From NCBI GenBank assembly GCA_946902875.1, contig OX336349.1, forward strand, positions 10,563,891-10,627,890: DNA of 64,000 nucleotides, given 5' to 3'. Origin of the DNA: Nematopogon swammerdamellus. Taxonomy: Eukaryota; Arthropoda; Insecta; Lepidoptera; Adelidae. The notes under the pieces were generated by a model. It did not search any database and was not told where the DNA came from. It was given only the letters and a program-made list of their open reading frames with translations. Positions 25,886-63,649 of this stretch are shown piece after piece (within the stretch, counting starts at the first letter, position 1; the number at the start of each line of letters is the position of its first letter). Position numbers and translations under genes: made by a program.

Positions 25886-25899
25886 TTAACCCTTAATGC

Positions 25900-28096: not shown

Positions 28097-28099
28097 CTG

Positions 28100-29460: not shown

Positions 29461-29467
29461 CATAAAC

Positions 29468-31008: not shown

Positions 31009-31009
31009 A

Positions 31010-32470: not shown

Positions 32471-32837
32471 GCAGATAACGTCTCGGCCGGATTCGAAGCT
32501 CGAACCTTGAGATCAAGATTCCTACGCCGCCGCCGCCTCGATCGCGCCGACACTCGCTGCTTTAAATCATTATGTACAGAAAGCAAATATTTGAAGTAAT
32601 CAGAATTCCGTGAAATGTGCAAACATCGTTTACCCAGTGGCGGCTTAAGGTGGATTGACACCCGGGGCTGAAAAATATTTGTGATAATATTTCCATGTCA
32701 CTAATTTGAAAAAAAAACTATGTTTTATGCAAAAAGGGGCTGAAAAATATAACGTAATTTTTTTTTTACAATTTATTGAATTATGTAATTATGGTTCTTA
32801 AGTTTCAAGTTCTTGGTTTCAGCACTGGAAAATTTTC

Positions 32838-33360
32838 TTTTTTTTATGGGAAGCACGACATGATGCGCGCCAGAGAGGCGTAGTCCGACGACGACGCCCA
32901 CGGGCATTCGAATATTTCGTAGGCTGCGAACACCATGTCGGCCGGCTAGGTGCACCTTCACATTATGTTTAAAGGACCCCAGACTGTACATTAGAGGAAA
33001 GGATGCCGGTGGGAGTGCACTCCACCCACATCTTGGCAACTCTGTAAGTAAATGAAGGATTTACAGGATCTATTTGTCCTAAGTGGGGGGATATCGACAG
33101 TGTGTGGATGCATTCCTAACCTGTTGCGCGTGGATGCATTCCTAACCTGTTGCTGTTAATCGAGTCTAAGGAGCCGGAGCAGGCATTTTGCGGATCCGTC
33201 CCACAGATGCGAACAGTACTCCACGCATGAGCGAATCTACGCTGTATAAAACAGCAGTTTTTGGTTCAGCGCTGGTTGGTGGCTGGCTGGTGGTTGGTAC
33301 TGACGCACATTGTTGAGGACACCCAGCTTCCTTGAGGCTACCTTAGCTTTCTCCTCTAAA
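32838..33360 (-). mobile_element. LINE 3' end, degenerate
   Basis: It starts at a T-run followed by ATGGGAAGCACGACATGATG, the reverse of the tail family at 3090-3190, and extends upstream into remnants of the RT C-terminus. A short duplication (GTGGATGCATTCCTAACCTG) occurs at 33105 and 33130. Confidence 0.5.
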
Positions 33361-33419
33361 GCAAAAATAAACCAAGCAGTGTTTAATTAAAGAGTAAACC
33401 ATCCATATTATTATAAACC

Positions 33420-34200
33420 AGACAACTTGGCGGCGCCTTTTTCGACTTACATGCTACGCGGACGAGTCGGTTCATTTTCGTAAATTTTTATACAATCTTA
33501 TCCCAGTCAATTTGTCACCCCATGGCTTCTTGTCACCCGGGGCGGACCCGTTTCGGACTCAGTTTCGGTTGCACGTTTGAGTGTTCCAGAAGTACCTTTC
33601 ACTATTATTGTAGGCACAGATCAGAGAAGTATTGTAGGTATCAGTTCTTACTTCGGCTTGGCTGGCGTGAAATTTTACGTTTATTTCTCTTAGTCGAAAA
33701 GTCAACTATCCCTATGCAAAATTTCAGGTCCCGAAGTTTTATAGATAAAGCGTCCAAGAGTAGGTGTAACAACCAACTGACACGCGAAAAGACATCATTT
33801 GTATGTAGGACTACCTACATACATCGAAGTACATCAGTTTAGTTGCCAAGCCAAGAGCCGTCAAGATCCGTCTGAGTAATTTATGCGTCGATTATCTCGC
33901 GGGAGTGACGGCTGGGACGCACATTAGCTGAGACAAGATGGCAAGCGCTATAGTGCGTTACCTAGAGCTCCGTCTCGCATCGCTAAAGGACGGAAATAAG
34001 CAGATATTGTCTTGAGCGTCAACACCCGCATCAACGCCCTCAGCACAGTTAACACCTATAAGCAAACTACATCAACGTAACAAGGATGTTATATAGGTTA
34101 ATGTTATGAAGGATTCAGCGTGAGCCCGTGAAATTGTTTTGAAGAGTTTTCATAGGTAATCGACTGTAAAAGACATGTTTATACGTAGGATCTTTGAAAC
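33420..34200. other. unassigned sequence, moderately GC-rich
   Basis: A 106-codon frame at 33522-33842 and a 25-codon frame at 33940 have no recognisable motif. It could be LTR or intergenic sequence. Confidence 0.3.
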
Positions 34201-34214
34201 AGGAAAAATTCACA

Positions 34215-34425
34215 AGACGGAAAGGCGAGAGCGAAGGCCATCTACGTCCATCTAGCCAGGCCAGGCGAACCATATGCTTTCTCGAAGTAACTAAAGTCAC
34301 TAAAGGCGAGGCCGAAGGCCGAGATGTGTCCGCATTAAGCGATATACTGACTTAATCTAAAACAGGACGTTACTAAGGGCGAGGCTGAAGGGCAAACTAC
34401 GTTCGCGTGAGCACATAGGCATTAT
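34215..34425 (+). repeat. degenerate copies of the GGCGAGGCCGAAGG minisatellite
   Basis: Three units share GGCGAGGCCGAAGGCCGAG with the Sec31-intron array 27 kb away. Confidence 0.65.
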
Positions 34426-34427
34426 CG

Positions 34428-34802
34428 AAAAAAAGTTTTAAAAAACATAAAACCGACTTCCTAAAAAAAGTAAAACTAAAAAACTATTTAAAATAAAAAT
34501 ATAAAAACCGCCTTCAAAAATATATGAAATAAAAACCTAAAAAAAAAACGAGCCCTAGAGTTGAAGGCGGTGCTAAAAAGGCTACACAAATCACAAAGGA
34601 TATTATCATCCACTCATGTTTTCTTTCATGCATCATTTTTGCTTGCTTTAGCACCGCCTTCAACTCTAGGGTTGGTTTTTTTGTTTTTTAGGTTTTTATT
34701 TCATATATTTTTGAAGGCGGTTTTTATATTTTTATTTTAAATAGTTTTTTAGTTTTACTTTTTTTAGGAAGTCGGTTTTATGTTTTTTAAAACTTTTTTT
34801 TT
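34428..34802. mobile_element. fold-back element with about 150-bp inverted repeats
   Basis: Arms 34428-34577 and 34647-34802 contain TAAAACCGACTTCCT, AAAAACCGCCTTCAAAAATA and CTAGAGTTGAAGGCGGTGCT and their complements; the centre is only about 70 bp. Few mismatches are visible. Confidence 0.8.
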
Positions 34803-34845
34803 ATTTCACAGTTTTTTTTAGTAATTTTTTGCTATTAATGTACTC

Positions 34846-34882
34846 GGCGGAATCGCTCGGCCTTCGGCCTCGCGATTCCGCC
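34846..34882. repeat. nested GC hairpin
   Basis: GGCGGAATCGC and its complement flank GGCC-TTC-GGCC, giving a 37-nt hairpin 45 bp after the fold-back element. Confidence 0.75.
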
Positions 34883-34924
34883 TCGCTTTCCAATCCGATC
34901 TTGACCCAATTAAAATAGGACCAC

Positions 34925-35278
34925 GTCAGCTTCGATAGCTCAGTGGTGCAGACAGTCAACTGTCGCTATTGAATGTTAAGCAACGCTGGGTGCGGTCAGT
35001 ACTTGGATGGGTGACCGCTGACCGTTGGAGGCTGACCGAGGTTCTGATTCCTCGTAAAACTGTAGGTCCCTTCCCTCCTAATCTTACTTGGTGGTAGGGT
35101 TTAACCTGCCCGGGTTGGTACCACCGCACTGAACGGTCGAAACGGCTATGTAAATAGTTTGTGTTTTCCGATCAGTTCAGTGTAGTCAGCACGATCAAAG
35201 GGGGAAGCACTGACATGGCACTTAGTTTACCCGGTGTTATGGGCTGACATCACGGACGTTGTAGGTGATGTTGCAGAA
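34925..35278 (+). mobile_element. SINE with tRNA-like head and 5S rRNA-like insert
   Basis: A box TAGCTCAGTGG is at 34938; the 5S-like block (AAGCAACGCTGGGTGCGGTC, AGTACTTGGATGGGTGACCG) is at 34977-35023; a B box-like GAGGTTCTGATTCC follows. The body is ACTGTAGGTCCCTTCCC to GACGTTGTAGGTGATG. The poly(A) end is replaced by the tandem repeat that follows. Confidence 0.8.
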
Positions 35279-36576
35279 CTTAGTAGAATGGACAGACATA
35301 AACGTGTTACGGAACCCTACTTTTATTATAAAATAACCGTCGGAGGGCCTTGGTTAGAAAATTGTAAAATTTAGTAGAACGGACAGACATACATTTGTTA
35401 CGGAACCCTACATTCATTTTGAAATAAATGTTAAATTTTGTAGAACGGACAGACATGCATTTGTTACGGAACCCTACATTCATCTTGCAGAACTTAGTAG
35501 AATGGACAGACATAAACGTGTTATCGAACCCTACTTAACAGTTGCACTGCGGGAGTGCCGGCAGATCCCGTGCCACTCTAACTTAACCCTTAATGCAATG
35601 ACTTAAGGTTTCATTTTAAAAATAAGGCTGACGCGATGTCGCGCGTTATAAATTTTTTACCCACCTAAAAAAGTGCCAAGCGCCGCTAAAGAAGTTTTCA
35701 CTTCAAAAACCTCAGGGTTATCCCCTTTCAAATAAAAAAAAAAAGAATTTTCAAAATCGGCCCACAATTGACGGAGTAATCGCGTAACAAACATCCAAAA
35801 AACTGTAGGTCCCTTCCCTCCTAATCTTACTTGGTGGTAGGGTTTAACCTGCCCGGGTTGGTACCACCGCACTGAATTAAACGTCGGTCGAAACGGCTAT
35901 GTAAATAGTTTGTGTTTTCCGACCAGTTCAGTGTAGTCAGCACGATCAAAGGGGGAAGCACTGAAATGGCACTTAGTTTACCCGGTGTTATGGGCTGACA
36001 TCACGGACGTTGTAGGTGATGTTGCAGAACTTAGTAGAATGGACAGACATAAACGTGTTACGGAACCCTACTTTTATTATAAAATAACCGTCGGAGGACC
36101 TTGGTTGAAAATTGTGAAATTTAGTAGAATGGACAGACATACATTTGTTACGGAACCCTACTTTTATTATAAAATAACCGTCGGAGGGCCTTGGTTGAAA
36201 ATTGTAAAATTTAGTAGAACAGACAGACATGCATTTGTTACGGAACCCTACATTCAGTTTGCAGAACTTAGTAGAATGGACAGACATAAACGTGTTACCG
36301 AACCCTACTTAACAGTTGCACTCCGGGAGTGCCGGCAGATCCCGTGCCACTCTAACTTAACCCTTAATGCAATGACTTAAGGTTTCATTTTAAAAATGAC
36401 GCTGACGCGATGTCGCGAGTTATACATTTTTTACCCACCTAAAAAAGTGCCAAGCGCCGCTAAAGAAGTTTTCACTTCAAAAACCTCAGGGTTATCCCCT
36501 TTCAAATAAAAAAAAAAAAAAATTTCAAAATCGGCCCACAATTGACGGAGTAATCGCGTAACAAACATCCAAAAAA
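35059..36576 (+). repeat. 743-bp tandem duplication (two copies)
   Basis: Copy 1 is 35059-35801 and copy 2 is 35802-36576. Both include the SINE body, several units around GTAGAATGGACAGACATAAA and TTACGGAACCCTAC, and AGTGCCAAGCGCCGCTAAAG. Copy 2 has one extra or longer internal unit. Confidence 0.8.
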
Positions 36577-41604: not shown

Positions 41605-41690
41605 CACACATTGTACCGTGTGGGGTCGGTACTTAAAAAGAATAGCCCCACTGCATCTCTCCCCGTCGCATGTCGTAAAAGTCGACTAAG
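41605..41690 (+). repeat. SINE body fragment that was the target of the 12.5-kb element
   Basis: The family sequence TCGTAAAAGTCGACTAAG stops at 41690; its continuation ACTAAGGGATAAG is found at 54181, on the other side of the palindromic element. Confidence 0.8.
41685..41690 (+). repeat. target-site duplication ACTAAG, left copy
   Basis: ACTAAG precedes the left terminus; the right copy is at 54181-54186. Uninterrupted family members read GACTAAGGGATA once, supporting a true 6-bp duplication. Confidence 0.8.
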
Positions 41691-41699
41691 AGTAGGGTA

Positions 41700-42135
41700 T
41701 GTAGGGGGCTCCGAGCACACACTCGTGATTTTTCTAAGTCCGAGAATCAGGGGGCGTGGCCTAATTTGGGGTGTACGTAGGGCTTCGAAGTCAGGGTTCA
41801 GCTCCAGGGTGTCAGGTCAGGGTGCTGCGCCCCATCAATTTGGAGGGTGTACGTAGGCCTTCGGATTCAGGGTTCAGACTTTCGGATTCAGGATTCAGGC
41901 CTTAGGATTCAGGATTCAGGGTTCCAGATTCAGGGTTCAGGTCCAGGGTGCTGCGCCCCATCCATTTGAGGCGTACGTAGGCCTTCGGAGTCATGGTTCA
42001 GCTCCAGGGTGCTGCACCCCACCAGCATGGTTCCACATGCACCGAGGCTTCGCCCCTGCCCCCTACCCCACCCCGCCCCTACCACCATCCGCCGCCTCTG
42101 CCCGCGCTTCCCCGCCCCCTGCCTCACCGCCCGTT
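41700..42135 (+). repeat. sub-terminal GC-rich tandem repeats, left arm
   Basis: Many variants of GGATTCAGGGTTCAG and CCAGGGTGCTGCGCCCCA, then a C-rich block (CCCCTACCCCACCCCGCCCC). The mirror is at 53736-54171. Open frames here are low-complexity artefacts. Confidence 0.8.
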
Positions 42136-42140
42136 CTCCG

Positions 42141-42600
42141 CGGCTGACTCAGTATCTTTGGAATTTTACCTGTAGAGACGTGACGCCATTTGTCGTGACG
42201 TGACATCGGTGGCAGGTTTTAACCTGTAGCAACCTGCAGGAACGACTTACCCCCCTACCCATTAATATAAAGATAACGTAACAATGTTCTGTGAAATGTA
42301 TTCATACTCAGCATGACTGAGGCATCGTCAGTCAGGTAGGTTGGAGCCTAATGGTGTAGGAATGCAGACATGGCTGTCTCAATATCTTTGGAATTTTACC
42401 TGTAGAGACGTGACGCCATTTGTCGTGACGTGACATCGGGTGGCAGGTTTTATCCTGTAGCAACCTGCAGGAACGACTTACCCCCCTACCCATTAATATA
42501 AAGATAACGTAACAATGTTCTCTGAAATGTATTCATACTCAGCATGACTAAAGCATCGTTAGTCAGGTAGGTTGGAGCCTAATGGTGTAGGAATGCAGAC
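42141..42600 (+). repeat. two 230-bp copies of the BIR-gene leader
   Basis: Each unit has the first codons of the BIR gene (GCTGACTCAGTATCTTTGGA, or ATGGCTGTCTCAATATC at 42370), then TTTTACCTGTAGAGACGTGA and a 200-bp leader ending GGAATGCAGAC. The third unit continues into the real gene at 42601. A fourth start is at 44020. Confidence 0.85.
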
Positions 42601-42969
42601 ATGGCTGACTCAATATCTTTAGAATTTTACCTGCGCTATTCGTCCGAGTCGGCAGGTCTTCAAACATTCAACGATTGGCCACGCGCCCTCCGGCAGAAGC
42701 CTGAAGAAATTGTTAAGGCTGGGTTTTTCTACACTGGTTTTGGTGACAAAGTGGTGTGCTTTTACTGCGGAGGAACACTCAACCAGTGGCGACCGGAAGA
42801 CACACCGTGGGAGGAGCACACGAGGCTAGACCGCTGCGCTTTCGTCTACATAATGAAGGGAGCTGACTTCGCCACAGTCAAAGCAAAAGGATTGGACGAG
42901 ATCGACATTCCGAGCTATTCGCCATACTTGTATGCGCCATCAGACGATGGAGCCTTTAACTTGAAATGA
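42601..42969 (+). CDS. single-BIR, IAP-like protein, left arm (122 residues)
   Basis: BIR domains bind one zinc and, in inhibitor-of-apoptosis proteins, hold caspases or their IAP antagonists. Residues about 18-85 form a BIR: FNDWP at 23, KAGFFYTG at 39, zinc ligands C53, C56, H73 and C80 (C-x2-C-x16-H-x6-C), the WRPEDTPWEEH segment and CAFV. There is no RING and no second BIR, so it is far shorter than insect IAP1/2 or most baculovirus IAPs. The N-terminal MADSISLEFY is also present in the upstream leader duplicates. The reading frame is intact, single-exon, with AATAAA at about 42979. The mirror gene at 52902-53270 encodes the same protein. Presumed role is host cell-death control by a mobile or viral element; this is inference. 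Confidence 0.85.
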   Translation: MADSISLEFYLRYSSESAGLQTFNDWPRALRQKPEEIVKAGFFYTGFGDKVVCFYCGGTLNQWRPEDTPWEEHTRLDRCAFVYIMKGADFATVKAKGLDEIDIPSYSPYLYAPSDDGAFNLK

Positions 42970-43393
42970 TTAATTTTCAATAAATATTTTTACATTTAAC
43001 AGTGAATACATTTATTTCAACCCACCCACACCCATAAATGAAACAAAAGTTAGCAGAAATGTTTATTTATTTTCACAAATCTTAATGCTAAAGTGTACAT
43101 GATATATGTTTTAGAAAAGTCACTTAAACCCATTATTTACATAAATGGGGCAACCTAAGTTTCGTCAGCAAATATTTATTTCTTGGTCAGGTCTATGATG
43201 GTTGTTTTAAAGATGATGATGATGGCGTGGTAGATAGGTTAGAAATCAGCTTGCTGTCGCGCTGGTTAATGGTGATATGTATGATGGCCCATTACCTCTG
43301 AGAAAAAATTGTATTGGATGTTGTCAGAATATTTTAATTTTTCATGACATATTTTATTATTTAATTTACGTACAAAGTGGAAATCTTATACTC

Positions 43394-43810
43394 TTAATCT
43401 ATTTGTATAACATTTTGCTGCGCATCTAACATTTGCGTAACGATATTGGCTATAGCGGAAATTATCCTTCGCTCATATTGGTTTAGCTCTGGGGTCTGCT
43501 GCACAATGCCTAACGTTGGCGATTGATGCTGCTGAGTGATCCAATCTGAAGATTGCAATGTGCACACGTTTGATGTTGGATCTTGCTTGTGCGATGTCAG
43601 CGGTGATGGCGGCTGCTGTTGATGTGTAGGCGAATAGTATGCAGATGAGTATCGCGGTGGAGATGTCGCTGGTAGAGGTGGCGATGGTGAATAATTCATC
43701 AGGGTATACGTAGGTGAGCCGTAGGTGGGTGAGTATCGCGTTGGATATATCGTTGGTGGAGATGTAGGTGGTGAATTAAGCAGCGGTGAGTCTTGCGCAA
43801 GCGAACCCAC
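43394..43810 (-). CDS. proline-rich protein of unknown function, left arm (138 residues)
   Basis: I do not recognise it. It is rich in Pro, Ser, Thr and Tyr, with repeated SPPTS and YSPTYGSPTY-like units up to about residue 65. A Gln-rich part follows, then a short helix-like C-terminus (ERRIISAIANIVTQML). It is convergent with the BIR gene, 425 bp apart. A poly(A)-type AATAAA lies just downstream on the minus strand (about 43355). The mirror copy has a premature stop, so this arm holds the only intact version. Confidence 0.6.
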   Translation of the reverse strand: MGSLAQDSPLLNSPPTSPPTIYPTRYSPTYGSPTYTLMNYSPSPPLPATSPPRYSSAYYSPTHQQQPPSPLTSHKQDPTSNVCTLQSSDWITQQHQSPTLGIVQQTPELNQYERRIISAIANIVTQMLDAQQNVIQID

Positions 43811-43879
43811 CCAACTTATGAGTGGTGGTGCGGAAATGTATTAGGACAGTGTTTTTCAAACTGCGGATAGCGAAGCCAG

Positions 43880-44080
43880 TGCTAGGTCAGGGTGCTGCGC
43901 CCCACCAGCGTGGTTCCACTGGCACCGAGGCTTCGCCCCTTCCCCCTACCCCGCCCCGCCCCTGCCACCCCCCTCCGCCAGTCAGGTAGGTTGGAGCCTA
44001 ATGGTGTAGGAATGCAGACATGGCTGACTCAATATCTTTGGAATTTTACCTGTAGAGACGTGACGTAATGAAGTACCACT
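43880..44080 (+). repeat. GC-rich block plus fourth BIR-leader copy, left arm
   Basis: CAGGGTGCTGCGCCCCACCA, a C-rich run, then TCAGGTAGGTTGGAGCC and the start ATGGCTGACTC at 44020, which is closed by TAG after 11 codons. Confidence 0.7.
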
Positions 44081-44228
44081 CCAACCTATCGTCCTGTGAG
44101 TTACACCGAGTCGAGATCGAGGGGGTGAAAGCTCATGCCACTCGGTGTGCGAGTTGGACTCGCACTTGGTCGGGAAACTGGCTCGGTTGACTATATCAAC
44201 TACAACCTACAGTTATACGTTTATCCTA

Positions 44229-44540
44229 CAGTTGGTGAAAGCTGCAAGTTGAAATCAAACTTATTACAATGGCTCAAGGTACATTATTTATGTTTGATTC
44301 CTGCCTACGTGCCGGAGTACCTAGCGTGTTAATACTTGCTTACAGTGTGACTCATTTAGGGATGAACAATTAGAAATTGTGGTGTGAAGGGTGGTTGGTG
44401 AAAGCTGCAAGTTGAAATCAAACTTATTACAATGGCTCAAGGTACATTATTTATGTTTGATTCCTGCCTACGTGCCGGAGTACCTAGCGTGTTAATACTT
44501 GCTTACAGTGTGAATCATTTAGCGATGAACAATTAGAAAT
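44229..44540 (+). repeat. 163-bp direct duplication with a 34-codon frame, left arm
   Basis: GGTGAAAGCTGCAAGTTGAA recurs at 163 bp. Each unit has a small frame (ATG at 44269 and 44432; MAQGTLFMFDSCLRAG...). Coding status is doubtful. Mirror at about 51297-51608. Confidence 0.65.
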
Positions 44541-44545
44541 TGTGA

Positions 44546-44995
44546 ACTGGGGTTGACAAAAGAGCTCATTAGTGGTAGATACCAAGGGATCGCTCACAGG
44601 CAACGTAGATTGAGACTTGTTGAAACATACCAATTGTTGTGGAGATATTTTTAAATGTAAAATTTTCTTAGTGCAACTATTGTGAAAGATAACTGATGTC
44701 TGGGGATGAACAAAAGAGCTCATTACTGGAAGGTATCAGCGGGTCGCTCACAGGTGACGCAGCGCAGGTTGAGACTTGCAGAAACATGAAAATGTTTGGT
44801 GAAATTATTTAAAAGTAATATCGCGCTGTGATAAAGTGTAGGTAAGTCGACCCTTCCCACAACAGCCATTATTAAAGATAATAGACGTCTTTGGGGGTTG
44901 AACAAAAGAGCTCTGTACTGGGAAAAACCAACGGGTCCATCTCGTTCGACGCAGATTGAGACTTGTAGAAACATGAAAATGTTTGACAATTTTTT
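44546..44995 (+). repeat. three diverged repeats upstream of the 101-residue gene, left arm
   Basis: ACAAAAGAGCTCATTA, a G-rich spacer, then TTGAGACTTGTAGAAACATG-like sequence recur at about 44550, 44710 and 44900. They could be promoter or origin modules. Mirror at about 50842-51291. Confidence 0.6.
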
Positions 44996-45163
44996 ATAGT
45001 AAAATATTTTTATTTATCTATATAGCTCATGTTTATAAGACTGAGCGCACAATTTTAGTAAAACAGTTCGATCGCAGCAGCACGCCGACTTGTATCTCTA
45101 CACACCACAGTGAGCTGATTTCTAAATATCGACCACACCCGCATCATCTTCACACCAACCATC

Positions 45164-45469
45164 ATGGACCTAACCAAGATCAACGAAGCGGGCAAGCGAG
45201 CCTTCCTGGAGACGCGGAAACTCGCCATCTTGGAGATTGGAAAACTCTACCGAGTGACCGACTTGCGCAAAGTTGCAACCAAATACGGAGATCGCATTGT
45301 AGCTGACATCGATGAGACTTTCTGCGTCTTCCTACCCAAGCGGATGATCGACGCCTTCAACAAGGATGGGAAGATGTTCGAAGATATGGTTGAAGCTAGC
45401 AGAGAAAACATGCTTGGGCTGAAATACCTTGGTGGGACGTACAATGCTATCGAGTTCGATAGTATGTAA
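45164..45469 (+). CDS. 101-residue protein of unknown function, left arm
   Basis: The single-exon frame MDLTKINEAG... has an alternating beta-like middle (KLYRVTDLRKVATKYGDRIV, then ADIDETFCVFLPKR) that could be a small OB-like nucleic-acid-binding fold. The pattern reminds me of short proteins repeatedly annotated in arthropod repeats, but I cannot name a family. Upstream are CTATATAG and TTATAAG boxes (45018, 45033) and a 130-bp leader. AATAAA motifs lie at about 45525 and 45580. The mirror at 50368-50673 is identical in protein sequence, suggesting recent origin or arm-to-arm conversion. Confidence 0.6.
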   Translation: MDLTKINEAGKRAFLETRKLAILEIGKLYRVTDLRKVATKYGDRIVADIDETFCVFLPKRMIDAFNKDGKMFEDMVEASRENMLGLKYLGGTYNAIEFDSM

Positions 45470-45858
45470 GAAGAGGGCGTGGAAATGTATGTGGAATACC
45501 AACGTTTTAGCTGTACGATTTTAGAAATAAAAAATTTTGTCTAAGATATGTACTGTGTATTAAGGAAAATAACCTTATGTAATAAAGCTTATAATTGAAC
45601 AATATTTTTTAATTTTCATACCCAACCGCACTAGATAATACCAAGGTATATAGTTATTAGTTCCTTAGTAAGAAACTCTAACAATTTTGTGAATCATCAA
45701 AATTTATTTCACTAAGGTTGGAAACAAAAGATTAAAAATTGTGGGAATTCTTTTCATAGCTTCAGCCCACAACTTTACCTGCGCACATGTAGGTACTTCT
45801 GGCATGAGGGGGCTGCTTCTAGATTAGGAAAGGTGGGTTGACGCTTGAGTTTAAATAA

Positions 45859-46074
45859 TATTATTTCGAGGCATCATTTAAAATTGAAACGTCGTGCAAG
45901 CAAGTTCTCAAAGAAATCAACATCATGGGAGTGACCGCTAAATGGCGAATTAACAGCACCGCGCAAGTGCAGGTGGCCATCGTGCGGCACAACAGTGGAA
46001 AATTCAATGATGGCGAGCTGTATCGCTGTATTCAGCTAACCTATTCTTCAGATGAGATATATTTGTCATTATAA
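45859..46074 (+). CDS. exon-like reading frame, left arm (72 codons)
   Basis: It is open from 45859; it could begin at ATG 45925 (MGVTAKWRINSTAQVQVAIV...) or, as an exon, further upstream. In the right-arm copy the same frame meets a perfect splice donor (TCAG|GTGAGATA at 49775). Here that site is TCAGATGAGATA and translation runs on to a TAA at 46072. Product unknown. Confidence 0.4.
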   Translation, partial: YYFEASFKIETSCKQVLKEINIMGVTAKWRINSTAQVQVAIVRHNSGKFNDGELYRCIQLTYSSDEIYLSL

Positions 46075-46160
46075 TATATATTTTATACATACCACTTTTT
46101 TACAGAATCACAATGTTTACTCGATGTGAACCTATTATACCTTATCACTATTTGATCATT

Positions 46161-46425
46161 GTCAGCCTCGGTAGCTCAGTGGTGTGTCAACAGCTGTAAA
46201 GCAACCCTGGGAGCGGATAGTGCTGAGATGGGTGATTGATCACTCATCCGTTGGAGGCTGACCGTGGTTCGGATCCTACGTTAAACTGTAGGATAAATGT
46301 ATAACTGTAGGTTGTAGTTGATATAGTCAACCGAGCCAGTTTCCCGACCAAGTGCGAGTCCAACTCGCACACCGAGGGTTCCGTATCACCATATCATGGT
46401 CAGCACCACTCACGCCATTAATCTA
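46161..46425 (+). mobile_element. tRNA/5S-type SINE inside left arm
   Basis: The head GTCAGCCTCGGTAGCTCAGT is at 46161, with a degenerate 5S-like middle and B box GTGGTTCGGATCC. Then come AAGTGCGAGTCCAACTCGCA and GAGGGTTCCGTATCACC. The mirror is at about 49404-49666; a third, direct-repeat copy is at about 47980-48225. Confidence 0.65.
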
Positions 46426-47013
46426 CCTGAGATGGGGCCTGGCGGCGAAGCTTTACAAGCGCAATTGTTCAGCCGGAAGCCGGAGCCGGTGGGGTAGCAC
46501 GTTAAATTTATTAACATTTTATTAGGTAATAATTACTCCAATTAACTACTCTATTAAACTGAAATGAAACTTAGGCGGTAATATTTCTAAAAATTATTTT
46601 GATTGCTCCAATTAAAACAAGAATTACATTTATTGAAGTTTTATTAGGTACCTATTAAATATCCCCATTAACCTGATAAGACCCTTAGCCTACAGAAAAC
46701 GTTCAACGAGCCAACATTTCCGAGAGTTGGTGGATGACTCAAGATTCGGGAAGCATGATACCGGATTCGGGAATCATGAATTGGAGCCCAGGAGGTGGCG
46801 AGGGTGGCGGAGCGGGGGTAGCGGGGGTGGGGTGGCACGCTAAATTATTTTTTTTTTTATTAGGTATTAATTACCCCAATTAACTGTTCTATTAAACTGA
46901 TATGAAGCTTAGGCGGTAACATTTCTAAAAAATATTTTAATTACTCCAATTAAAACGATAATTACATTTATTGACGTTTTATTAGGTATTAATTACCCCA
47001 ATTAACTGACAAA

Positions 47014-47850
47014 TTGATGGGGCGCAGCACCTTGACCTGGCACCCTGGAGTTGAACCCTGACTCCGATTGGGCTGCAGGGATACTGCGGAGGGGTGAAGG
47101 CTGGGGCGGAGGAGGGTGGCAGGGGCGGGGCGGGGTAGGGGGAAGGGGCGAAGCCTCGGTGCCAGTGGAACCATGCTGGTGGGGCGCAGCACCCTGACCT
47201 AGCACCCTGGACCTGAACCCTGTGGAAATGTTGGCTCGTTGAACGTTTTCTGTAGGCTAAGGGTCTTATCAGGTTAATGGGGATAATTAATAGGTACCTA
47301 ATAAAACTTCAATAAATGTAATTCTTGTTTTAATTGGCGCAATCAAAATAATTTTTAGAAATATTACCGCCTAAGTTTCATATCAGTTTAATAGAGTAGT
47401 TAATTGGAGTAATTATTACCTAATAAAATGTTGGGGCGCAGCACCTTGACCTGGCACCCTGGAGCTGAACCCTGACTCCGATCGGGCGGCAGGGATACTG
47501 CGGAGGGGTGAAGGCTGGGGCGGAGGGGGGGTGGCAGGGGCGGGGCGGGGTAGGGGGGAGGGGCGAAGCCTCGGTGCCAGTGGAACCACGCTGGTGGGGC
47601 GCAGCACCCTGACCTAGCACCCTGGACCTGAACCCTGCGGAAATGTTGGCTCGTTGAACGTTTTCTGTAGGCTAAGGGTCTTATCAGGTTAATGGGGATA
47701 ATTAATAGGTACCTAATAAAACTTCAATAAATGTAATTCTTGTTTTAATTGGCGCAATCAAAATAATTTTTAGAAATATTACCGCCTAAGTTTCATATCA
47801 GTTTAATAGAGTAGTTAATTGGAGTAATTATTACCTAATAAAATGTTAAT
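47014..47850 (+). repeat. spacer of the palindrome: two direct 420-bp units
   Basis: Each unit has a GC-rich half (GGGGCGCAGCACCTTGACCT, GGCAGGGGCGGGGCGGGGTA) and an AT-rich half (GTAGGCTAAGGGTCTTATCA to CCTAATAAAATGTT). Units start at about 47020 and 47433. The AT-rich half is also part of both arms (46505-46740, 48690-48910). Confidence 0.75.
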
Positions 47851-47857
47851 AAATGAG

Positions 47858-48400
47858 TGCCGATTTCAGATTTTTTTTTTAACACATTGGTACACCTCAT
47901 TGCCCTGAGTATAGGTCTTAATAATAAATATAGGTGCCAAAATAGTAGTGTATGAAGCATTATAACTAATGGCGTGAGTGGTGCTGACCATGATATGGTG
48001 ATACGGAACCCTCGGTGTGCGAGTTGGACTCGCACTTGGTCGGGAAACTGGCTCGGTTGACTATATCAACTACAACCTACAGTTATACGTTTATCCTACA
48101 GTTTAACCGAGATCCGAACCACGGTCAGCCTCCAACGGATGAGTGATCAATCACCCATCTCAGCACTATCCGCACCCACGGTTGCTTTACAGCTGTTGGC
48201 ACACCACTGAGCTACCGAGGCTGACAATGATCAAATAGTGATAAGGTATAATAGGTTCACATCGAGTAAACATTGTGATTCTGTAAAAAAAGTGGTGTGT
48301 ATAAAATATATATTATAATGACAAATATATCTCACCTGAAGAATAGGTTAGCTGAATACAGCGATACAGCTCTTGTGCCGCACGATGGACCCCTGCACTA
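47858..48400 (-). repeat. direct duplicate of the 49303-49850 segment
   Basis: It shares GAGTGCCGATTTCAG, the SINE and the exon-like frame end, but lacks the middle of that exon (jump at about 48373). Confidence 0.65.
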
Positions 48401-49010
48401 TTTGTCAGTTAATTGGGGTAATTAATACCTAATAAAACGTCAATAAATGTAATTCTCGTTTTAATTGGAGTAATTAAAATAATTTTAAAAATGTTACCGC
48501 CTGAGCTTCATATCAGTTTAATAGAGTAGTTAATTGGGGTAATTAATACTTAATAAAAAAAAAATTATTAATTTAGCGTGCCACTCCACCCCCGCTACCC
48601 CCGCTCCGCTACCCTCGCCACCTCCTGGGCTCCAATTCATGATTCCCGAATCCGGTATCATGCTTCCCGAATCTTGAGTCATCCACCAACTCTCGGAAAT
48701 GTTGGCTCGTTGAACGTTTTCTGTAGGCTAAGGGTCTTATCAGGTTAATGGGGATAATTAATAGGTACCTAATAAAACTTCAATAAATGTAATTCTTGTT
48801 TTAATTGGAGCAATCAAACTAATTTTTAGAAATATTACCGCCTAAGTTTCATATCAGTTTAATAGAGTAGTTAATTGGAGTAATTATTACCTAATAAAAT
48901 GTTAATAAATTTAACGTGCTACCCCACCGGCTCCGGCTTCCGGCTGAACAATTGCGCTTGTAAAGCTTCGCCGCCAGGCCCCATCTCAGGTAGATCCTGC
49001 CCGGTCTACC

Positions 49011-49404
49011 CTTAGGTAGATATGATAATGTAACAATGGTGCTAACCTAACATAAGCACAGTACCTTTTTCTATCAATAAACAAACAAATGACTAACACT
49101 ACAAATAACAACTCTTTAAAATAATACCTTATAATAACACAAAGGATAGCAAAAACAGAATAATACAAAAAGTAACAACACAATAAAATAATATAACTAA
49201 ATACAACGCAGCAATAAATAAAATTAGAAAAGACATACATAAAACGACAAAACATTATTTTTTTTTAAATCGTCAATGGCCCTTTTGTGCTAACAAGAGT
49301 GCCGATTTCAGCTTTTTTTTAACCCATTGGTACACCTCAATGCCCTGAGTATAGGTCTTAATAATAAATATAGGTGCCAAAATAGTAGTGTATGAAGCAT
49401 TATA
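49011..49404. repeat. 394-bp segment present only in the right arm
   Basis: It is flanked by GGTAGAT direct repeats at its left edge and AT-rich throughout. It is either an insertion here or a deletion in the left arm. Confidence 0.6.
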
Positions 49405-49774
49405 ACTAATGGCGTGAGTGGTGCTGACCATGATATGGTGATACGGAACCCTCGGTGTGCGAGTTGGACTCGCACTTGGTCGGGAAACTGGATCGGTTGA
49501 CTATATCAACTACAACCTACAGTTATACGTTTATCCTACAGTTTAACGTAGGATCCGAACCACGGTCAGCCTCCAACGGATGAGTGATCAATCACCCATC
49601 TCAGCACTATCCGCACCCAGGGTTGCTTTACAGCTGTTGACACACCACTGAGCTACCGAGGCTGACAGTGATCAAATAGTGATAAGGTATAATAGGTTCA
49701 CATCGAGTAAACATTGTGATTCTGTAAAAAAGTGGTGTGTATAAAATATATATTATAATGACAAATATATCTCA

Positions 49775-49964
49775 CCTGAAGAATAGGTTAGCTGAATACA
49801 GCGATACAGCTCGCCATCATTGAATTTTCCACTGTTGTGCCGCACGATGGCCCCATGCACTTGCGCGGCGCTGTTAATTCGCCATTTGGCGGTCACTCCC
49901 ATGATGTTGATTTCTTTGAGAACTTGCTTGCACGACGTTTCAATTTTAAATGATGCCTCGAAAT
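49775..49964 (-). CDS. exon-like reading frame, right arm, with intact splice donor
   Basis: This is the mirror of 45859-46074. ATG lies at 49902-49900; the frame ends at CAG|GTGAGATA. Two missense-type differences from the left copy are visible (STAQVQV versus SAAQVHG). No downstream exon could be identified. Confidence 0.4.
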
Positions 49965-50367
49965 AATATTATTTAAACTCAAGCGTCAACCCACCTTTCC
50001 TAATCCGGAATTATCTAGAAGCAGCCCCCTCATGCCAGAAGTACCTACATGTGCGCAGGTAAAGTTGTGGGCTGAAGCTATGAAAAGAATTCCCACAATT
50101 TTTAATCTTTTGTTTCCAACCTTAGTGAAATAAATTTTGATGATTCACAAAATTGTTAGAGTTTCTTACTAAGGAACTAATAACTATATACCTTGGTATT
50201 ATCTAGTGCGGTTGGGTATGAAAATTACAAAATATTGTTCAATTATAAGCTTTATTACATAAGGTTATTTTCCTTAATACACAGTACATATCTTAGACAA
50301 AATTTTTTATTTCTAAAATCGTACAGCTAAAACGTTGGTATTCCACATACATTTCCACGCCCTCTTC

Positions 50368-50673
50368 TTACATACTATCGAACTCGATAGCATTGTACGT
50401 CCCACCAAGGTATTTCAGCCCAAGCATGTTTTCTCTGCTAGCTTCAACCATATCTTCGAACATCTTCCCATCCTTGTTGAAGGCGTCGATCATCCGCTTG
50501 GGTAGGAAGACGCAGAAAGTCTCATCGATGTCAGCTACAATGCGATCTCCGTATTTGGTTGCAACTTTGCGCAAGTCGGTCACTCGGTAGAGTTTTCCAA
50601 TCTCCAAGATGGCGAGTTTCCGCGTCTCCAGGAAGGCTCGCTTGCCCGCTTCGTTGATCTTGGTTAGGTCCAT
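50368..50673 (-). CDS. 101-residue protein of unknown function, right arm
   Basis: It is the mirror of 45164-45469 and identical in translation. It keeps the same leader and poly(A) signals, including TTTATT complements at about 50310 and 50250. Facing copies at such distance could give double-stranded RNA if either were read through the spacer. Confidence 0.6.
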   Translation of the reverse strand: MDLTKINEAGKRAFLETRKLAILEIGKLYRVTDLRKVATKYGDRIVADIDETFCVFLPKRMIDAFNKDGKMFEDMVEASRENMLGLKYLGGTYNAIEFDSM

Positions 50674-52060
50674 GATGGTTGGTGTGAAGATGATGCGGGT
50701 GTGGTCGATATTTAGAAATCAGCTCACTGTGGTGTGTAGAGATACAAGTCGGCGTGCTGCTGCGATCGAACTGTTTTACTAAAATTGTGCGCTCAGTCTT
50801 ATAAACATGAGCTATATAGATAAATAAAAATATTTTACTATAAAAAATTGTCAAACATTTTCATGTTTCTACAAGTCTCAATCTGCGTCGAACGAGATGG
50901 ACCCGTTGGTTTTTCCCAGTACAGAGCTCTTTTGTTCAACCCCCTAAGACGTCTATTATCTTTAATAATGGCTGTTGTGGGAAGGGTCGACTTACCTACA
51001 CTTTATCACAGCGCGATATTACTTTTAAATAATTTCACCAAACATTTTCATGTTTCTGCAAGTCTCAACCTGCGCTGCGTCACCTGTGAGCGACCCGCTG
51101 ATACCTTCCAGTAATGAGCTCTTTTGTTCATCCCCAGACATCAGTTATCTTTCACAATAGTTGCACTAAGAAAATTTTACATTTAAAAATATCTCCACAA
51201 CAATTGGTATGTTTCAACAAGTCTCAATCTACGTTGCCTGTGAGCGATCCCTTGGTATCTACCACTAATGAGCTCTTTTGTCAACCCCAGTTCACAATTT
51301 CTAATTGTTCATCGCTAAATGAGTCACACTGTAAGCAAGTATTAACACGCTAGGTACTCCGGCACGTAGGCAGGAATCAAACATAAATAATGTACCTTGA
51401 GCCATTGTAATAAGTTTGATTTCAACTTGCAGCTTTCACCAACCACCCTTCACACCACAATTTCTAATTGTTCATCCCTAAATGAGTCACACTGTAAGCA
51501 AGTATTAACACGCTAGGTACTCCGGCACGTAGGCAGGAATCAAACATAAATAATGTACCTTGAGCCATTGTAATAAGTTTGATTTCAACTTGCAGCTTTC
51601 ACCAACTGTAGAATAAACGTATAACTGTAGGTTGTAGTTGATATAGTCAACCGAGCCAGTTTCCCGACCAAGTGCGAGTCCAACTCGCACACCGAGTGGC
51701 ATGAGCTTTCACCTCCTCGATCTCGACTCGGTGTAACTCACAGGACGATAGGGTGGAGTGGTACTTCATTACGTCACGTCTCTACAGGTAAAATTCCAAA
51801 GATATTGAGTCAGCCATGTCTGCATTCCTACACCATTAGGCTCCAACCTACCTGACTGGCGGAGGGGGGTGGCAGGGGCGGGGCGGGGTAGGGGGGAGGG
51901 GGGTGGCAGGGGCGGGGCGGGGTAGGGGGAAGGGGCGAAGCCTCGGTGCCAGTGGAACCACGCTGGTGGGGCGCAGCACCCTGACCTAGCACTGGCTTCG
52001 CTATCCGCAGTTTGAAAAACACTGTCCTAATACATTTCCGCACCACCACTCATAAGTTGG

Positions 52061-52477
52061 GTGGGTTCGCTTGCGCAAGACTCACCGCTGCTTAATTCAC
52101 CACCTACATCTCCACCAACGATATATCCAACGCGATACTCACCCACCTACGGCTCACCTACGTATACCCTGATGAATTATTCACCATCGCCACCTCTACC
52201 AGCGACATCTCCACCGCGATACTCATCTGCATACTATTCGCCTACACATTAACAGCAGCCGCCATCACCGCTGACATCGCACAAGCAAGATCCAACATCA
52301 AACGTGTGCACATTGCAATCTTCAGATTGGATCACTCAGCAGCATCAATCGCCAACGTTAGGCATTGTGCAGCAGACCCCAGAGCTAAACCAATATGAGC
52401 GAAGGATAATTTCCGCTATAGCCAATATCGTTACGCAAATGTTAGATGCGCAGCAAAATGTTATACAAATAGATTAA
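52061..52477 (+). pseudogene. proline-rich gene, right arm, premature stop
   Basis: It is the mirror of 43394-43810. A single C-to-T change turns a Gln codon after ...YYSPTH into TAA (52250-52252), truncating it to 63 residues. The downstream frame is still open to TAA at 52475-52477, so the lesion is recent. Confidence 0.75.
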
Positions 52478-52901
52478 GAGTATAAGATTTCCACTTTGTA
52501 CGTAAATTAAATAATAAAATATGTCATGAAAAATTAAAATATTCTGACAACATCCAATAAAATTTTTTCTCAGAGGTAATGGGCCATCATACATATCACC
52601 ATTAACCAGCGCGACAGCAAGCTGATTTCTAACCTATCTACCACGCCATCATCATCATCTTTAAAACAACCATCATAGACCTGACCAAGAAATAAATATT
52701 TGCTGACGAAACTTAGGTTGCCCCATTTATGTAAATAATGGGTTTAAGTGACTTTTCTAAAACATATATCATGTACACTTTAGCATTAAGATTTGTGAAA
52801 ATAAATAAACATTTCTGCTAACTTTTGTTTCATTTATGGGTGTGGGTGGGTTGAAATAAATGTATTCACTTTTAAATGTAAAAATATTTATTGAAAATTA
52901 A

Positions 52902-53270
52902 TCATTTCAAGTTAAAGGCTCCATCGTCTGATGGCGCATACAAGTATGGCGAATAGCTCGGAATGTCGATCTCGTCCAATCCTTTTGCTTTGACTGTGGC
53001 GAAGTCAGCTCCCTTCATTATGTAGACGAAAGCGCAGCGGTCTAGCCTCGTGTGCTCCTCCCACGGTGTGTCTTCCGGTCGCCACTGGTTGAGTGTTCCT
53101 CCGCAGTAAAAGCACACCACTTTGTCACCAAAACCAGTGTAGAAAAACCCAGCCTTAACAATTTCTTCAGGCTTCTGCCGGAGGGCGCGTGGCCAATCGT
53201 TGAATGTTTGAAGACCTGCCGACTCGGACGAATAGCGCAGGTAAAATTCTAAAGATATTGAGTCAGCCAT
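52902..53270 (-). CDS. single-BIR, IAP-like protein, right arm (122 residues)
   Basis: It is the mirror of 42601-42969 and its translation is identical, including the zinc ligands C53, C56, H73 and C80. It has the same duplicated leader upstream (53271-53730) and the same AATAAA downstream. Intact in both arms, unlike the proline-rich gene, which hints at selection or recent gene conversion. Confidence 0.85.
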   Translation of the reverse strand: MADSISLEFYLRYSSESAGLQTFNDWPRALRQKPEEIVKAGFFYTGFGDKVVCFYCGGTLNQWRPEDTPWEEHTRLDRCAFVYIMKGADFATVKAKGLDEIDIPSYSPYLYAPSDDGAFNLK

Positions 53271-53730
53271 GTCTGCATTCCTACACCATTAGGCTCCAAC
53301 CTACCTGACTAACGATGCCTTAGTCATGCTGAGTATGAATACATTTCAGAGAACATTGTTACGTTATCTTTATATTAATGGGTAGGGGGGTAAGTCGTTC
53401 CTGCAGGTTGCTACAGGATAAAACCTGCCACCCGATGTCACGTCACGACAAATGGCGTCACGTCTCTACAGGTAAAATTCCAAAGATATTGAGTCAGCCA
53501 TGTCTGCATTCCTACACCATTAGGCTCCAACCTACCTGACTGACGATGCCTCAGTCATGCTGAGTATGAATACATTTCACAGAACATTGTTACGTTATCT
53601 TTATATTAATGGGTAGGGGGGTAAGTCGTTCCTGCAGGTTGCTACAGGTTAAAACCTGCCACCAATGTCACGTCACGACAAATGGCGTCACGTCTCTACA
53701 GGTAAAATTCCAAAGATACTGAGTCAGCCG
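53271..53730 (-). repeat. two BIR-leader copies, right arm
   Basis: It is the mirror of 42141-42600, with ATG at about 53501 closed by TAG after 11 codons. Confidence 0.8.
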
Positions 53731-53735
53731 CGGAG

Positions 53736-54171
53736 AACGGGCGGTGAGGCAGGGGGCGGGGAAGCGCGGGCAGAGGCGGCGGATGGTGGTAGGGGCGGGG
53801 TGGGGTAGGGGGCAGGGGCGAAGCCTCGGTGCATGTGGAACCATGCTGGTGGGGTGCAGCACCCTGGAGCTGAACCATGACTCCGAAGGCCTACGTACGC
53901 CTCAAATGGATGGGGCGCAGCACCCTGGACCTGAACCCTGAATCTGGAACCCTGAATCCTGAATCCTAAGGCCTGAATCCTGAATCCGAAAGTCTGAACC
54001 CTGAATCCGAAGGCCTACGTACACCCTCCAAATTGATGGGGCGCAGCACCCTGACCTGACACCCTGGAGCTGAACCCTGACTTCGAAGCCCTACGTACAC
54101 CCCAAATTAGGCCACGCCCCCTGATTCTCGGACTTAGAAAAATCACGAGTGTGTGCTCGGAGCCCCCTACA
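53736..54171 (-). repeat. sub-terminal GC-rich tandem repeats, right arm
   Basis: It is the mirror of 41700-42135: GGGGCGCAGCACCCTGGACC, CTGAATCCTGAATCC-type repeats. Confidence 0.8.
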
Positions 54172-54180
54172 TACCCTACT

Positions 54181-54186
54181 ACTAAG
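54181..54186 (+). repeat. target-site duplication ACTAAG, right copy
   Basis: It follows the right terminus ...ATACCCTACT directly and continues as GGATAAG, the normal SINE-body sequence. Confidence 0.8.
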
Positions 54187-61779: not shown

Positions 61780-62073
61780 CTACCTAGCCGGGGGGCGTCC
61801 CACGCTACGTTTGCTTGTACGTGGCCTCCATTCGAGTACCCGTCTACCCCATCGGTTGTCGGGTCTACGACAGATGTGCCCTGCCCACTGCCACTTCAGC
61901 TTGCTTATTTTCTTAGCAATGTCGACTACCTTAGTTCTTTGACGTATCATGTCGTTACGGATTTTATCGGTCAAAGAAATGCCGAGCATTGCTCTTTCCA
62001 TAGCTCGCTGAGCGACTTTAAATTTGTGGACCAGGCCAATCGTCAGGGTCCACGTTTCCGCTCCGTACGTCAT
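61780..62073 (-). pseudogene. RTE C-terminal domain
   Basis: TYGAETWTL, RAMLGISL and KLKWQWAGHICRR...WGRRVLEWRPRT define the RTE/craTE C-terminal region. It is the intact counterpart of the fragment at 61194. Confidence 0.88.
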
Positions 62074-62962
62074 TACTGGCAGAACGCACTGATTGAAGAC
62101 CGTGGGATGGAGGATGAAAAGATGTGGCGGAGTTTCCCAAATGCCGCCCAGCCTAGCTGAATCCTTCTGTTGGCCTCCTTGTCAAAGTTGTGCTTCCCTA
62201 GTTGGATGGTTTGTCCAAGATAGACATAATTCTGCACAACTTCGAGGGTCGCCTCTCCAACTGTTACGTGCCCCGGGACGACGTGTTCGTTGAACATGAC
62301 TTTTGTCTTGTCCAAATTCATCCCGAGGCCGACTCGGCGGGAGGCGACATTGAGGCCGTTCAGCAGGTTATTCAGCTCCTCCAGCGATTCGCCTATCACG
62401 ACTATGTCATCAGCGAAACGTAGGTGTGAAATGTACTCGCCGTTAATATTAATGCCGTGCTTTTTCCAATCCAGCAGCTTGAATATATCTTCCAATGCAT
62501 TCGTAAACAGTTTCGGAGATATAACATCTCCTGTCTGACTCCACGATGCAATTGGATAGGTTTTGTCTGCTGGTCCTGTATTGGTACGGTCATTGTCGCG
62601 GCACTATAGAGACATTTCAGCACCTCAATGTATCGCCAATCGGTTTGGCATCGCTGTAAGGATTCCACAGCCCAGGTTTCGATAGAGTCAAAGGCTTTCT
62701 CGTAGTCCACAAAAGCGAGACACAGTGGCCGATTATACTCTTCGGACTTCTGTATAATCTGCCGTAAGGTGTGGATGTGGTCTACGGTACTGTAACCCCT
62801 CCGAAACCCGGCCTGCTCTGGCGGCTGGTGGTCGTCAAACCTTCGGGCGAGACGATTGGTGAGGACTCTCGAGAACAGCTTATATACGTGGCTCAGGAGC
62901 GAGATGGGCCTATAGTTCTTCAACAAGGCTTTGTCGCCTTTCTTGAAGAACAATACGGCCAT
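62073..62962 (-). pseudogene. RTE reverse transcriptase core
   Basis: KNYRPISLLSHVYKLFSRVL, FDDHQPPEQAGFRRGYSTVD and FVDYEKAFDSIE come from one frame; HLRFADDIVVIGESLEEL from another, with a shift at about 62550. Both catalytic aspartate motifs are present. Confidence 0.9.
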
Positions 62963-63170
62963 ACTCCTGTTCCACGACTCTGGCGTAATGCCACCGTGTA
63001 TGACAGAGTTGAAGAGCCTCTGTAGTTCCTTGAGGACCTTTGTCCCCCCGGCTCTGGGAAGCTCTGTAGTAACTCCGTCTTCACCAGGAGCCTTGTTGTT
63101 TTAAGCTGCTCTAGAGCAATCTTGATCTCGCCCATGTTGACGTCTGGGATATCCTCCGTGTAGTGGCGGG

Positions 63171-63629: not shown

Positions 63630-63649
63630 ATCGAATCTATTTTTAAGCT

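What the first reader, a model, noticed from the sequence alone, without database searches (positions are those of the whole stretch)
41685..54186. 12.5-kb palindromic element with 6-bp target duplication, probably a non-autonomous Polinton/Maverick relative
Identical inverted ends starting 5'-AG and a perfect ACTAAG duplication that restores the interrupted SINE body show one integration event, not an assembly fold. Arms of 5.3-5.8 kb make up nearly the whole element. Known Polintons have 6-bp duplications, AG ends and inverted repeats, but normally shorter repeats around 10-20 kb of core genes; here the core is missing and the repeats carry the genes. I know of no described element of this shape.
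Basis: partly seen in the sequence, partly recalled or inferred. Interest (0 to 1): 0.95.

Follow-up and report, generated by a model that had tools for sequence, protein, structure and literature searches.

The report
Palindromic Polinton satellite family
A 12.5-kb mobile DNA element made almost entirely of two mirror-image halves belongs to a family of such palindromes that share the ends and insertion signature of a virus-like transposon (a Polinton) present in full in the same genome, which suggests that Polintons spawn self-complementary satellites that keep their two halves alike.

Summary
Window 41691-54180 (12,490 bp) is a near-complete palindrome flanked by ACTAAG on both sides. It is not an isolated oddity. 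In the same 699-Mb assembly the first 500 bp of the arm recur as at least 14 inverted end pairs 12.4-18.9 kb apart. Twelve of these elements, the window's included, were read wholly or largely, and all twelve are palindromic. Each element whose two ends could be read has a perfect 6-bp target duplication (13 of 13, two Polinton-type relatives included). A full 14.2-kb Polinton (C28:9309949-9324141) has the same ends; it carries PolB, A32-like ATPase, rve integrase, double-jelly-roll capsid and a BIR gene. The window arm combines this Polinton's end and BIR gene with about 3.2 kb lacking a long counterpart in it, including a predicted OB-fold protein. New here: the palindrome is transposed as a unit; its arms show concerted evolution; and a second palindrome type carrying PolB in both arms shares the same central hub. 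I infer snap-back or panhandle copying during protein-primed replication, with helper PolB and integrase. My literature searches found no described palindromic Polinton.

The parts
41685..41690 (.). left copy of target site duplication ACTAAG
   Evidence: sequence
54181..54186 (.). right copy of target site duplication ACTAAG
   Evidence: sequence
41691..47014 (+). left arm (5,324 bp)
   Evidence: inverted-repeat and tile maps
48400..54180 (-). right arm (5,781 bp), mirror of the left; holds about 411 bp missing from the left arm
47015..48399 (.). centre (about 1.4 kb) with nested inverted repeats, including two pieces of about 210-220 bp of the Polinton's left subterminal region; with the inner arms it forms the hub shared with the PolB palindromes
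46421..47004 (-). inner end of left arm: inverted match (95.4%) to the Polinton's left subterminal region, L039:872-1443
   Evidence: query coordinates there include 100 bp of flank
48410..49046 (+). inner end of right arm: match (95.8%) to the same Polinton region, L039:872-1494
   Evidence: query coordinates there include 100 bp of flank
41691..42400 (+). terminal 710 bp, 99.0% identical to the left end of the full-length Polinton C28
42601..42969 (+). BIR-domain (IAP-like) ORF, left arm; 42633-43185 is 98.9% identical to the BIR segment of Polinton C28
   Evidence: PF00653 E 2.5e-21
52902..53270 (-). BIR-domain ORF, right arm
43394..43840 (-). Pro/Ser/Tyr-rich ORF, left arm (coding status uncertain)
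52031..52477 (+). mirror of the Pro/Ser/Tyr-rich ORF, one internal stop
45164..45469 (+). ORF2, 101 aa, predicted OB fold, candidate ssDNA-binding protein, left arm
50368..50673 (-). ORF2, right arm

Best explanation
The element is a non-autonomous, self-complementary satellite of a Polinton/Maverick. SHOWN: it has the ends and the 6-bp duplication of a Polinton that is present in full in the same genome; no PolB, integrase or capsid gene was detected in it; it exists as a multicopy family of palindromes; in the sister copies WIN, C3 and C21 the same two slightly different arms were carried to new sites together, so the palindrome is transposed as a unit; in other copies the arms have been made alike. 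INFERRED: PolB and integrase of C28-type Polintons act on its AGTAG... ends in trans. Protein-primed strand displacement gives a displaced strand that is complementary to itself; it folds at the central hub, and copying on this hairpin or panhandle rewrites one arm from the other, starting at the terminus. The first palindrome probably arose by such a snap-back on a recombinant Polinton end. ORF2 may coat the displaced strands and BIR may keep the host cell alive; both roles are guesses from fold and family.
For: Shared ends: 99.0% over 711 columns with the full Polinton C28, and the BIR segment 98.9% over 553 bp; gene content of C28. Of ten C28 frames searched in six frames against the window element only BIR matched at E <= 0.01. 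Exact 6-bp TSD in 13 of 13 evaluable elements (C9 not evaluable). Unit transposition: over about 4.3 kb WIN_L, C21_R and C3_R differ by 2-5 substitutions, and WIN_R, C3_L and C21_L by 1-6, while the two arms of one copy differ by 10-18; WIN lies in the opposite orientation. Terminal conversion: C21's arms are identical in the outer 2,286 bp but keep 10 inner substitutions, all found also between the arms of C3 and of WIN; C21_L differs by substitution from C3_L only at five outer sites (468, 502, 672, 1295, 1606), where it has the other arm's state. Concerted evolution: C31 and C24 show no difference between arms in the 4.3 kb compared (99.86% over their full blocks of about 5.7 kb); C18b has 5 in 5,343 within the copy against 56-64 in about 5,280 to the window; the same BIR lesion lies in both arms of C18b. 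PolB palindromes C4 and C20: inner arms 99.94% within each copy, 99.4-99.5% between them; C4, compared directly, shares its hub with the window element at 97-99%.
Confidence: 0.8

Rival explanations
1. Arms are kept alike by ordinary gene conversion in the chromosome after insertion, as in sex-chromosome palindromes; replication plays no part beyond the first palindrome.
For: The partial tract in C21 and block-wise differences in C22 look like conversion tracts; long inverted repeats are known conversion substrates (general knowledge).
Against: Arms identical over 4.3 kb in C31 and C24 and 99.9% over 5.3 kb in C18b need long tracts; the C21 tract starts at the terminus (one case); two palindrome types with different outer arms share one hub, which by inference needs arm replacement on both sides.
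Confidence: 0.35
2. Each palindrome is formed anew by snap-back from a one-armed precursor at every transposition, and the integrated copies are dead ends.
For: C31 and C24 arms are identical over 4.3 kb, C18b and the PolB palindromes nearly so.
Against: WIN, C3 and C21 share the same two distinct arms and the same centre at three loci, so at least this lineage copied an existing palindrome.
Confidence: 0.15
3. Two Polintons or fragments inserted tail to tail, or a chromosomal inverted duplication.
For: Each arm begins with a Polinton end.
Against: One TSD flanks the whole unit in 11 of 11 evaluable BIR/OB palindromes and in the C4 PolB palindrome, and the same structure lies at many loci. The centres were not searched for an internal TSD.
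Confidence: 0.02
4. Assembly artefact (fold-back reads or missed adapters).
For: Arms are 98.9-99.7% alike in the main blocks and no raw reads could be checked.
Against: Both outer ends stop at a TSD in different host sequence; arm-specific indels and substitutions recur at independent loci.
Confidence: 0.01
5. A foldback or Galileo-type cut-and-paste transposon unrelated to Polintons.
For: Arms make up nearly the whole element.
Against: Duplication is 6 bp in 13 of 13 and the termini are those of a Polinton carrying an rve integrase.
Confidence: 0.02

Closest known systems
Polinton/Maverick (polintovirus, adintovirus) elements; here the full copy C28:9309949-9324141
   Same: AGTAG... ends, inverted repeats, exact 6-bp duplication, BIR gene segment at 98.9%. 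Vertebrate Mavericks have (AG)3 or (AGT)2 end motifs, 6-bp TSDs and TIRs of 46-1,447 bp (passages of PMC8097293).
   Different: No PolB, integrase, ATPase, protease or capsid detected in the window element; inverted arms of 5.3-5.8 kb fill it and carry its genes twice; extra OB-fold gene not found in C28.
Palindromic (symmetric) defective genomes of adenoviruses, recalled; my one search for them listed no paper
   Same: One end of a protein-primed linear genome duplicated as a palindrome, dependent on a helper.
   Different: Those are, as recalled, laboratory derivatives; this is a chromosomal multicopy family that integrates and persists.
Foldback and Galileo elements of flies (recalled; Galileo named in a passage of PMC8504770)
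   Same: Very long inverted arms.
   Different: Different duplication length (recalled 7-9 bp) and transposase class (recalled); no Polinton ends.
Teratorn (passage of PMC6431247)
   Different: 41-182 kb herpesvirus-piggyBac element with 18-bp TIRs and its own transposase.

Membership tests
Polinton/Maverick, autonomous element | 6-bp target site duplication | tested here: met
   ACTAAG at the window element; 13 of 13 evaluable elements of the set
Polinton/Maverick, autonomous element | AG/AGT-type termini as inverted repeats | tested here: met
   AGTAGGG or AGTAGTATAC at both ends of the BIR/OB palindromes, AGTAGGTAAG in C4; motif from PMC8097293 passages
Polinton/Maverick, autonomous element | protein-primed PolB in the element | tested here: not met
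   none of the 72 listed PF03175 matches (91 of 178 candidates scored) lies in the window element; C28 PolB has no six-frame match there at E <= 0.01
Polinton/Maverick, autonomous element | rve integrase in the element | tested here: not met
   C28 integrase frame (216 aa, as read in L039) has no six-frame match at E <= 0.01; 15 of the 25 listed ORFs of 80 aa or more scanned by Pfam (the other ten are eight right-arm mirrors, one boundary and one flank ORF), only BIR above cut-off
Polinton/Maverick, autonomous element | double-jelly-roll capsid, ATPase, protease | tested here: not met
   no six-frame match of the C28 frames at E <= 0.01, same Pfam scans; in C28 capsid and ATPase are recognised by Pfam, the protease is not
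Non-autonomous derivative of a Polinton | same ends and duplication length as a full-length element in the same genome | tested here: met
   C28, 99.0% over the first 710 bp, TSD CACCCA
Non-autonomous derivative of a Polinton | mobilised in trans by the full element | not testable with these tools
   needs an experiment or polymorphism data
Foldback/Galileo | long inverted arms making up most of the element | tested here: met
Foldback/Galileo | family-typical duplication length (7-9 bp, recalled) | tested here: not met
   6 bp in 13 of 13
OB-fold ssDNA-binding protein (ORF2) | OB fold with similarity to known SSBs | tested here: inconclusive
IAP / BIR protein | BIR domain | tested here: met
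   PF00653 E 2.5e-21; BIR-protein chains in PDB such as apoptosis 1 inhibitor, XIAP and BIR-containing protein 1

The most novel reading that the evidence does not exclude
The genome hosts a helper-satellite system in which Polintons have given rise to a lineage with self-complementary, hairpin-forming genomes. One palindrome type carries PolB in each arm, another carries an OB-fold protein and a BIR protein, both are built on one shared central hub, and both rely on the conventional Polinton for integrase and perhaps capsid. The palindrome is a replicating architecture, with arm-to-arm copying in each or most cycles, that allows whole-arm gene exchange and rewrites one arm from the other.
Probability: 0.35. 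Interest if true: 0.88.

Novelty: new variant of a known kind. Interest (0 to 1): 0.76.

Why it matters
I found no description of non-autonomous Polintons that consist of two gene-bearing mirror arms in the ten searches I ran. The set of copies traces unit transposition and arm homogenisation by sequence alone, which gives a natural test of how protein-primed Polintons replicate and how defective or satellite genomes arise from them. It also shows a candidate ssDNA-binding gene and an IAP-like gene travelling as cargo without the replication and capsid genes.

Tried and rejected
Considered and rejected: assembly fold-back, tail-to-tail double insertion, chromosomal inverted duplication, foldback/Galileo class (see rivals). 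Led nowhere: ORF2 in the viral contig collection (70 pattern matches, none confirmed) and in phage records (none); BIR in the large protein set (2 candidates, none at E <= 1e-8); Pfam on the ten members of the ORF2 alignment (six families, best E 0.04-0.1, taken as chance); PHROGs (one weak match for ORF2, E 0.065, a phage Kil protein, taken as chance); PDB sequences with the ORF2 profile (three weak unrelated chains); Rfam over 41-55 kb (0 matches); single-strand folding of the first 100 bp of the arm (z 0.23, no special hairpin). In the PDB fold lists many ORF2 rows are B subunits of bacterial toxins; these share the OB fold and say nothing about function. The literature test was limited: ten searches, each seen as a listing that often showed only part of the papers found (for example 8 of 112, 15 of 78, 20 of 31); four papers were opened for passages.

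Genome searches: the end search and the PolB search were answered. The search for ORF2 over the whole genome did not complete, so where ORF2 came from, and whether any full Polinton carries it, is open; the BIR search was unanswered and not repeated. The C7 and C15 end pairs were not fetched; C20's outer arms and C9's right end were not fetched; for the C3 full-length Polinton only the PolB piece (L032) and the right part (L047) were held.

I also corrected element coordinates taken (its query had 100 bp of flank).
Full report
OBSERVATION. The element runs from 41691 to 54180 (12,490 bp), begins AGTAGGG and ends CCCTACT, and is flanked by ACTAAG on both sides. Arms of 5,324 bp (left) and 5,781 bp (right) match in main blocks of 99.7%, 98.9% and 97.3% identity around a centre of about 1.4 kb. 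The left arm lacks about 411 bp that the right arm keeps. The element shares 8,506 25-mers with its own reverse complement; none was shared in any of 100 first-order Markov shuffles; five other 12.49-kb pieces of the window gave 0, 0, 0, 96 and 284. Two SINE relatives elsewhere in the window show the uninterrupted site with one ACTAAG.

A FAMILY IN THE SAME GENOME. The window lies in an unnamed assembly of 699 Mb in 39 contigs. The first 500 bp of the arm gave 73 matches, with only 40 of 349 first-look candidates scored. Among them are 14 inverted pairs 12.4-18.9 kb apart, the window's included. I read eleven pairs besides the window: ten (C9 without its right end) and C18b. All eleven are palindromes. 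In one search the longest matching block per copy is 2.5 to 5.9 kb (above 4.5 kb in eight of ten; C21 and C22 are split by indels), at 98.9% identity or more; C18b has one of 5.3 kb at 99.9%. In C6 the left arm is followed by a second, partial direct copy of itself. Two pairs (C7, C15) were not fetched.

INSERTION SIGNATURE. In one search, 12 of 13 elements could be evaluated: ten BIR/OB palindromes (window included), the full Polinton C28 and the PolB palindrome C4. All 12 have an exact 6-bp duplication, each of a different sequence; C9 could not be evaluated. C18b adds GCGATG, so 13 of 13. Two terminal variants occur in the BIR/OB palindromes, AGTAGGGTATG and AGTAGTATACATA. The (AGT)2 start and the 6-bp TSD are Maverick motifs given in PMC8097293 (passages).

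THE POLINTON. PF03175 gave 72 matches in the genome (91 of 178 candidates scored), none in the window element. Eight of them lie inside an arm-end match, seven at about 3.5 kb and one at about 7 kb; a ninth (C8:4129156) lies about 6.6 kb inside the same end as C8:4126103. One of the eight, C28, was read in two pieces. From end to end (14,193 bp) it has PolB (ORF 1,275 aa), an A32-like ATPase (PF04665 4.7e-9), an rve integrase (PF00665 2e-13), a PLA2-like protein (PF08398 2.1e-12), a protease-like ORF (my reading of its motifs, no Pfam match), a 277-aa ORF in the penton position (position only), a double-jelly-roll capsid (PF21738 9.9e-115) and a BIR gene (PF00653 1e-22) beside the right end. 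The right part of a second full-length-type copy (C3, L047) is 98.8% identical to it over 5.2 kb.

ANATOMY OF THE ARM. Element 1-710 matches C28's left end at 99.0%; element 1-395 matches its right TIR at 96% over 408 columns, and element 943-1495, the BIR segment, matches C28's right side at 98.9%. Element 1496-4730 (3.2 kb) has only short matches to C28, of about 100 bp or less; it carries a Pro/Ser/Tyr-rich frame and ORF2. The inner arm ends, element 4731-5314 (inverted, 95.4%) and its mirror 6720-7356 (95.8%), match the C28 region just inside the left TIR, and the centre holds two further pieces of about 210-220 bp (whose query had 100 bp of flank). So the arm is a composite of Polinton end, Polinton BIR, foreign segment and Polinton subterminal hub. 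Ten C28 frames searched in six frames against the window element gave BIR only (E <= 0.01).

CARGO. The BIR frame is open in 22 of 23 arm copies (C3_L is shifted), and both arms of C18b lack the central zinc-binding stretch, so 22 of 25. ORF2 aligns over its full length in 25 of 25, with no stop in the 23. The Pro/Ser/Tyr-rich frame has no stop in 18 of 23. Because the copies are young, these counts are weak evidence of selection. ORF2 has nine relatives of 37-52% identity and a modelled OB fold (pLDDT 82). The best viral-library match is the SSB of Staphylococcus phage JBug18 (E 1e-5); that this phage is of the protein-primed kind is recalled. PDB matches are weak. ORF2 was not found in C28, in the parts of the C3 Polinton held, or in the parts read of the PolB palindromes (one chance match in L047 at E 6).

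HOW THE ARMS EVOLVE. Over about 4.3 kb, ten copies with both arms read differ within a copy by 0-18 substitutions (mean 7.2) and between copies by a mean of 19.9 over 180 arm comparisons. WIN, C3 and C21 carry the same pair of unlike arms (WIN inverted) and the same centre, so the palindrome was copied whole. In C21 the outer 2,286 bp of the arms are identical, while ten inner substitutions remain, all ten also present between the arms of C3 and of WIN; C21_L departs by substitution from its sister C3_L only at five outer sites, where it has the other arm's state. This is a tract running in from the terminus. C31 and C24 have no arm differences in these 4.3 kb (99.86% over their full blocks of about 5.7 kb); C18b has 5 in 5,343 against 56-64 in about 5,280 to the window, and the same BIR lesion in both arms. 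These facts show arm-to-arm copying. Against a simple rule of copying in every cycle, WIN, C3 and C22 keep 13-18 differences.

A SECOND PALINDROME TYPE. At C4:3003298-3018281 lies a palindrome of 14,984 bp with ends AGTAGGTAAG, TSD AATTTC and a 1,258-aa PolB frame in each arm; outer arms 99.88% over 2,448 bp, inner arms 99.94% over 3,137 bp. C20 holds a sister copy (inner arms 99.94%; 99.4-99.5% to C4), with one of its two PolB frames shorter (782 aa). Both carry a BIR remnant, and C4, which I compared directly, carries the window element's hub at 97-99%. In the parts read of C4 and C20, of the ten C28 frames only PolB and the BIR remnant matched at E <= 0.01.

MECHANISM. Shown: shared ends, same duplication length, no own replication or integration genes detected, unit transposition, arm-to-arm copying, one hub with two kinds of outer arm. 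Inferred: PolB and integrase supplied by C28-type Polintons; self-complementary displaced strands folding at the hub; homogenisation by copying on the hairpin or panhandle, starting at the ends; origin by snap-back on a recombinant end. Chromosomal gene conversion remains the main rival for the homogenisation step.

COMPARISON AND NOVELTY. It works like a Polinton satellite. It is not an autonomous Polinton, since PolB, integrase and capsid were tested and not found. Ten literature searches (seen as listings, often partial, with passages read in PMC8097293, PMC12220804, PMC8504770 and PMC6431247) gave no palindromic Polinton; most subscription papers and bioRxiv are not covered. I rate it a new variant of a known kind.

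Noticed in passing
L041-L043 (G000:C4:3003298-3018281) and L044 (C20): A second palindromic element type with a PolB frame in each arm, different ends (AGTAGGTAAG), 6-bp TSD AATTTC at C4, and the same central hub as the window element.
   Followed up: partly
L025 (G000:C6:26163914-26172400): Left arm 1-4514 is followed directly by a second, same-direction copy of arm 648-4404, in a 16.5-kb palindrome variant.
   Followed up: partly
G000, listing: Another PolB group with frames of 1,167-1,168 aa makes up 23 of the 72 listed matches, all but one without a stop inside the match; its elements were not examined.
   Followed up: no
L045/L046 (G000:C18:460308-473210): Both arms share the same loss of the BIR zinc-binding stretch, an example of a lesion present in both arms.
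   Followed up: partly
window 24001-36490: 284 25-mers shared with the reverse complement (96 in 18001-30490), so smaller inverted repeats exist elsewhere in the window.
   Followed up: no
window 258-1219 and 62073-63665: ORFs that read like RNase H and reverse transcriptase pieces of LINE-type elements (by eye).
   Followed up: no
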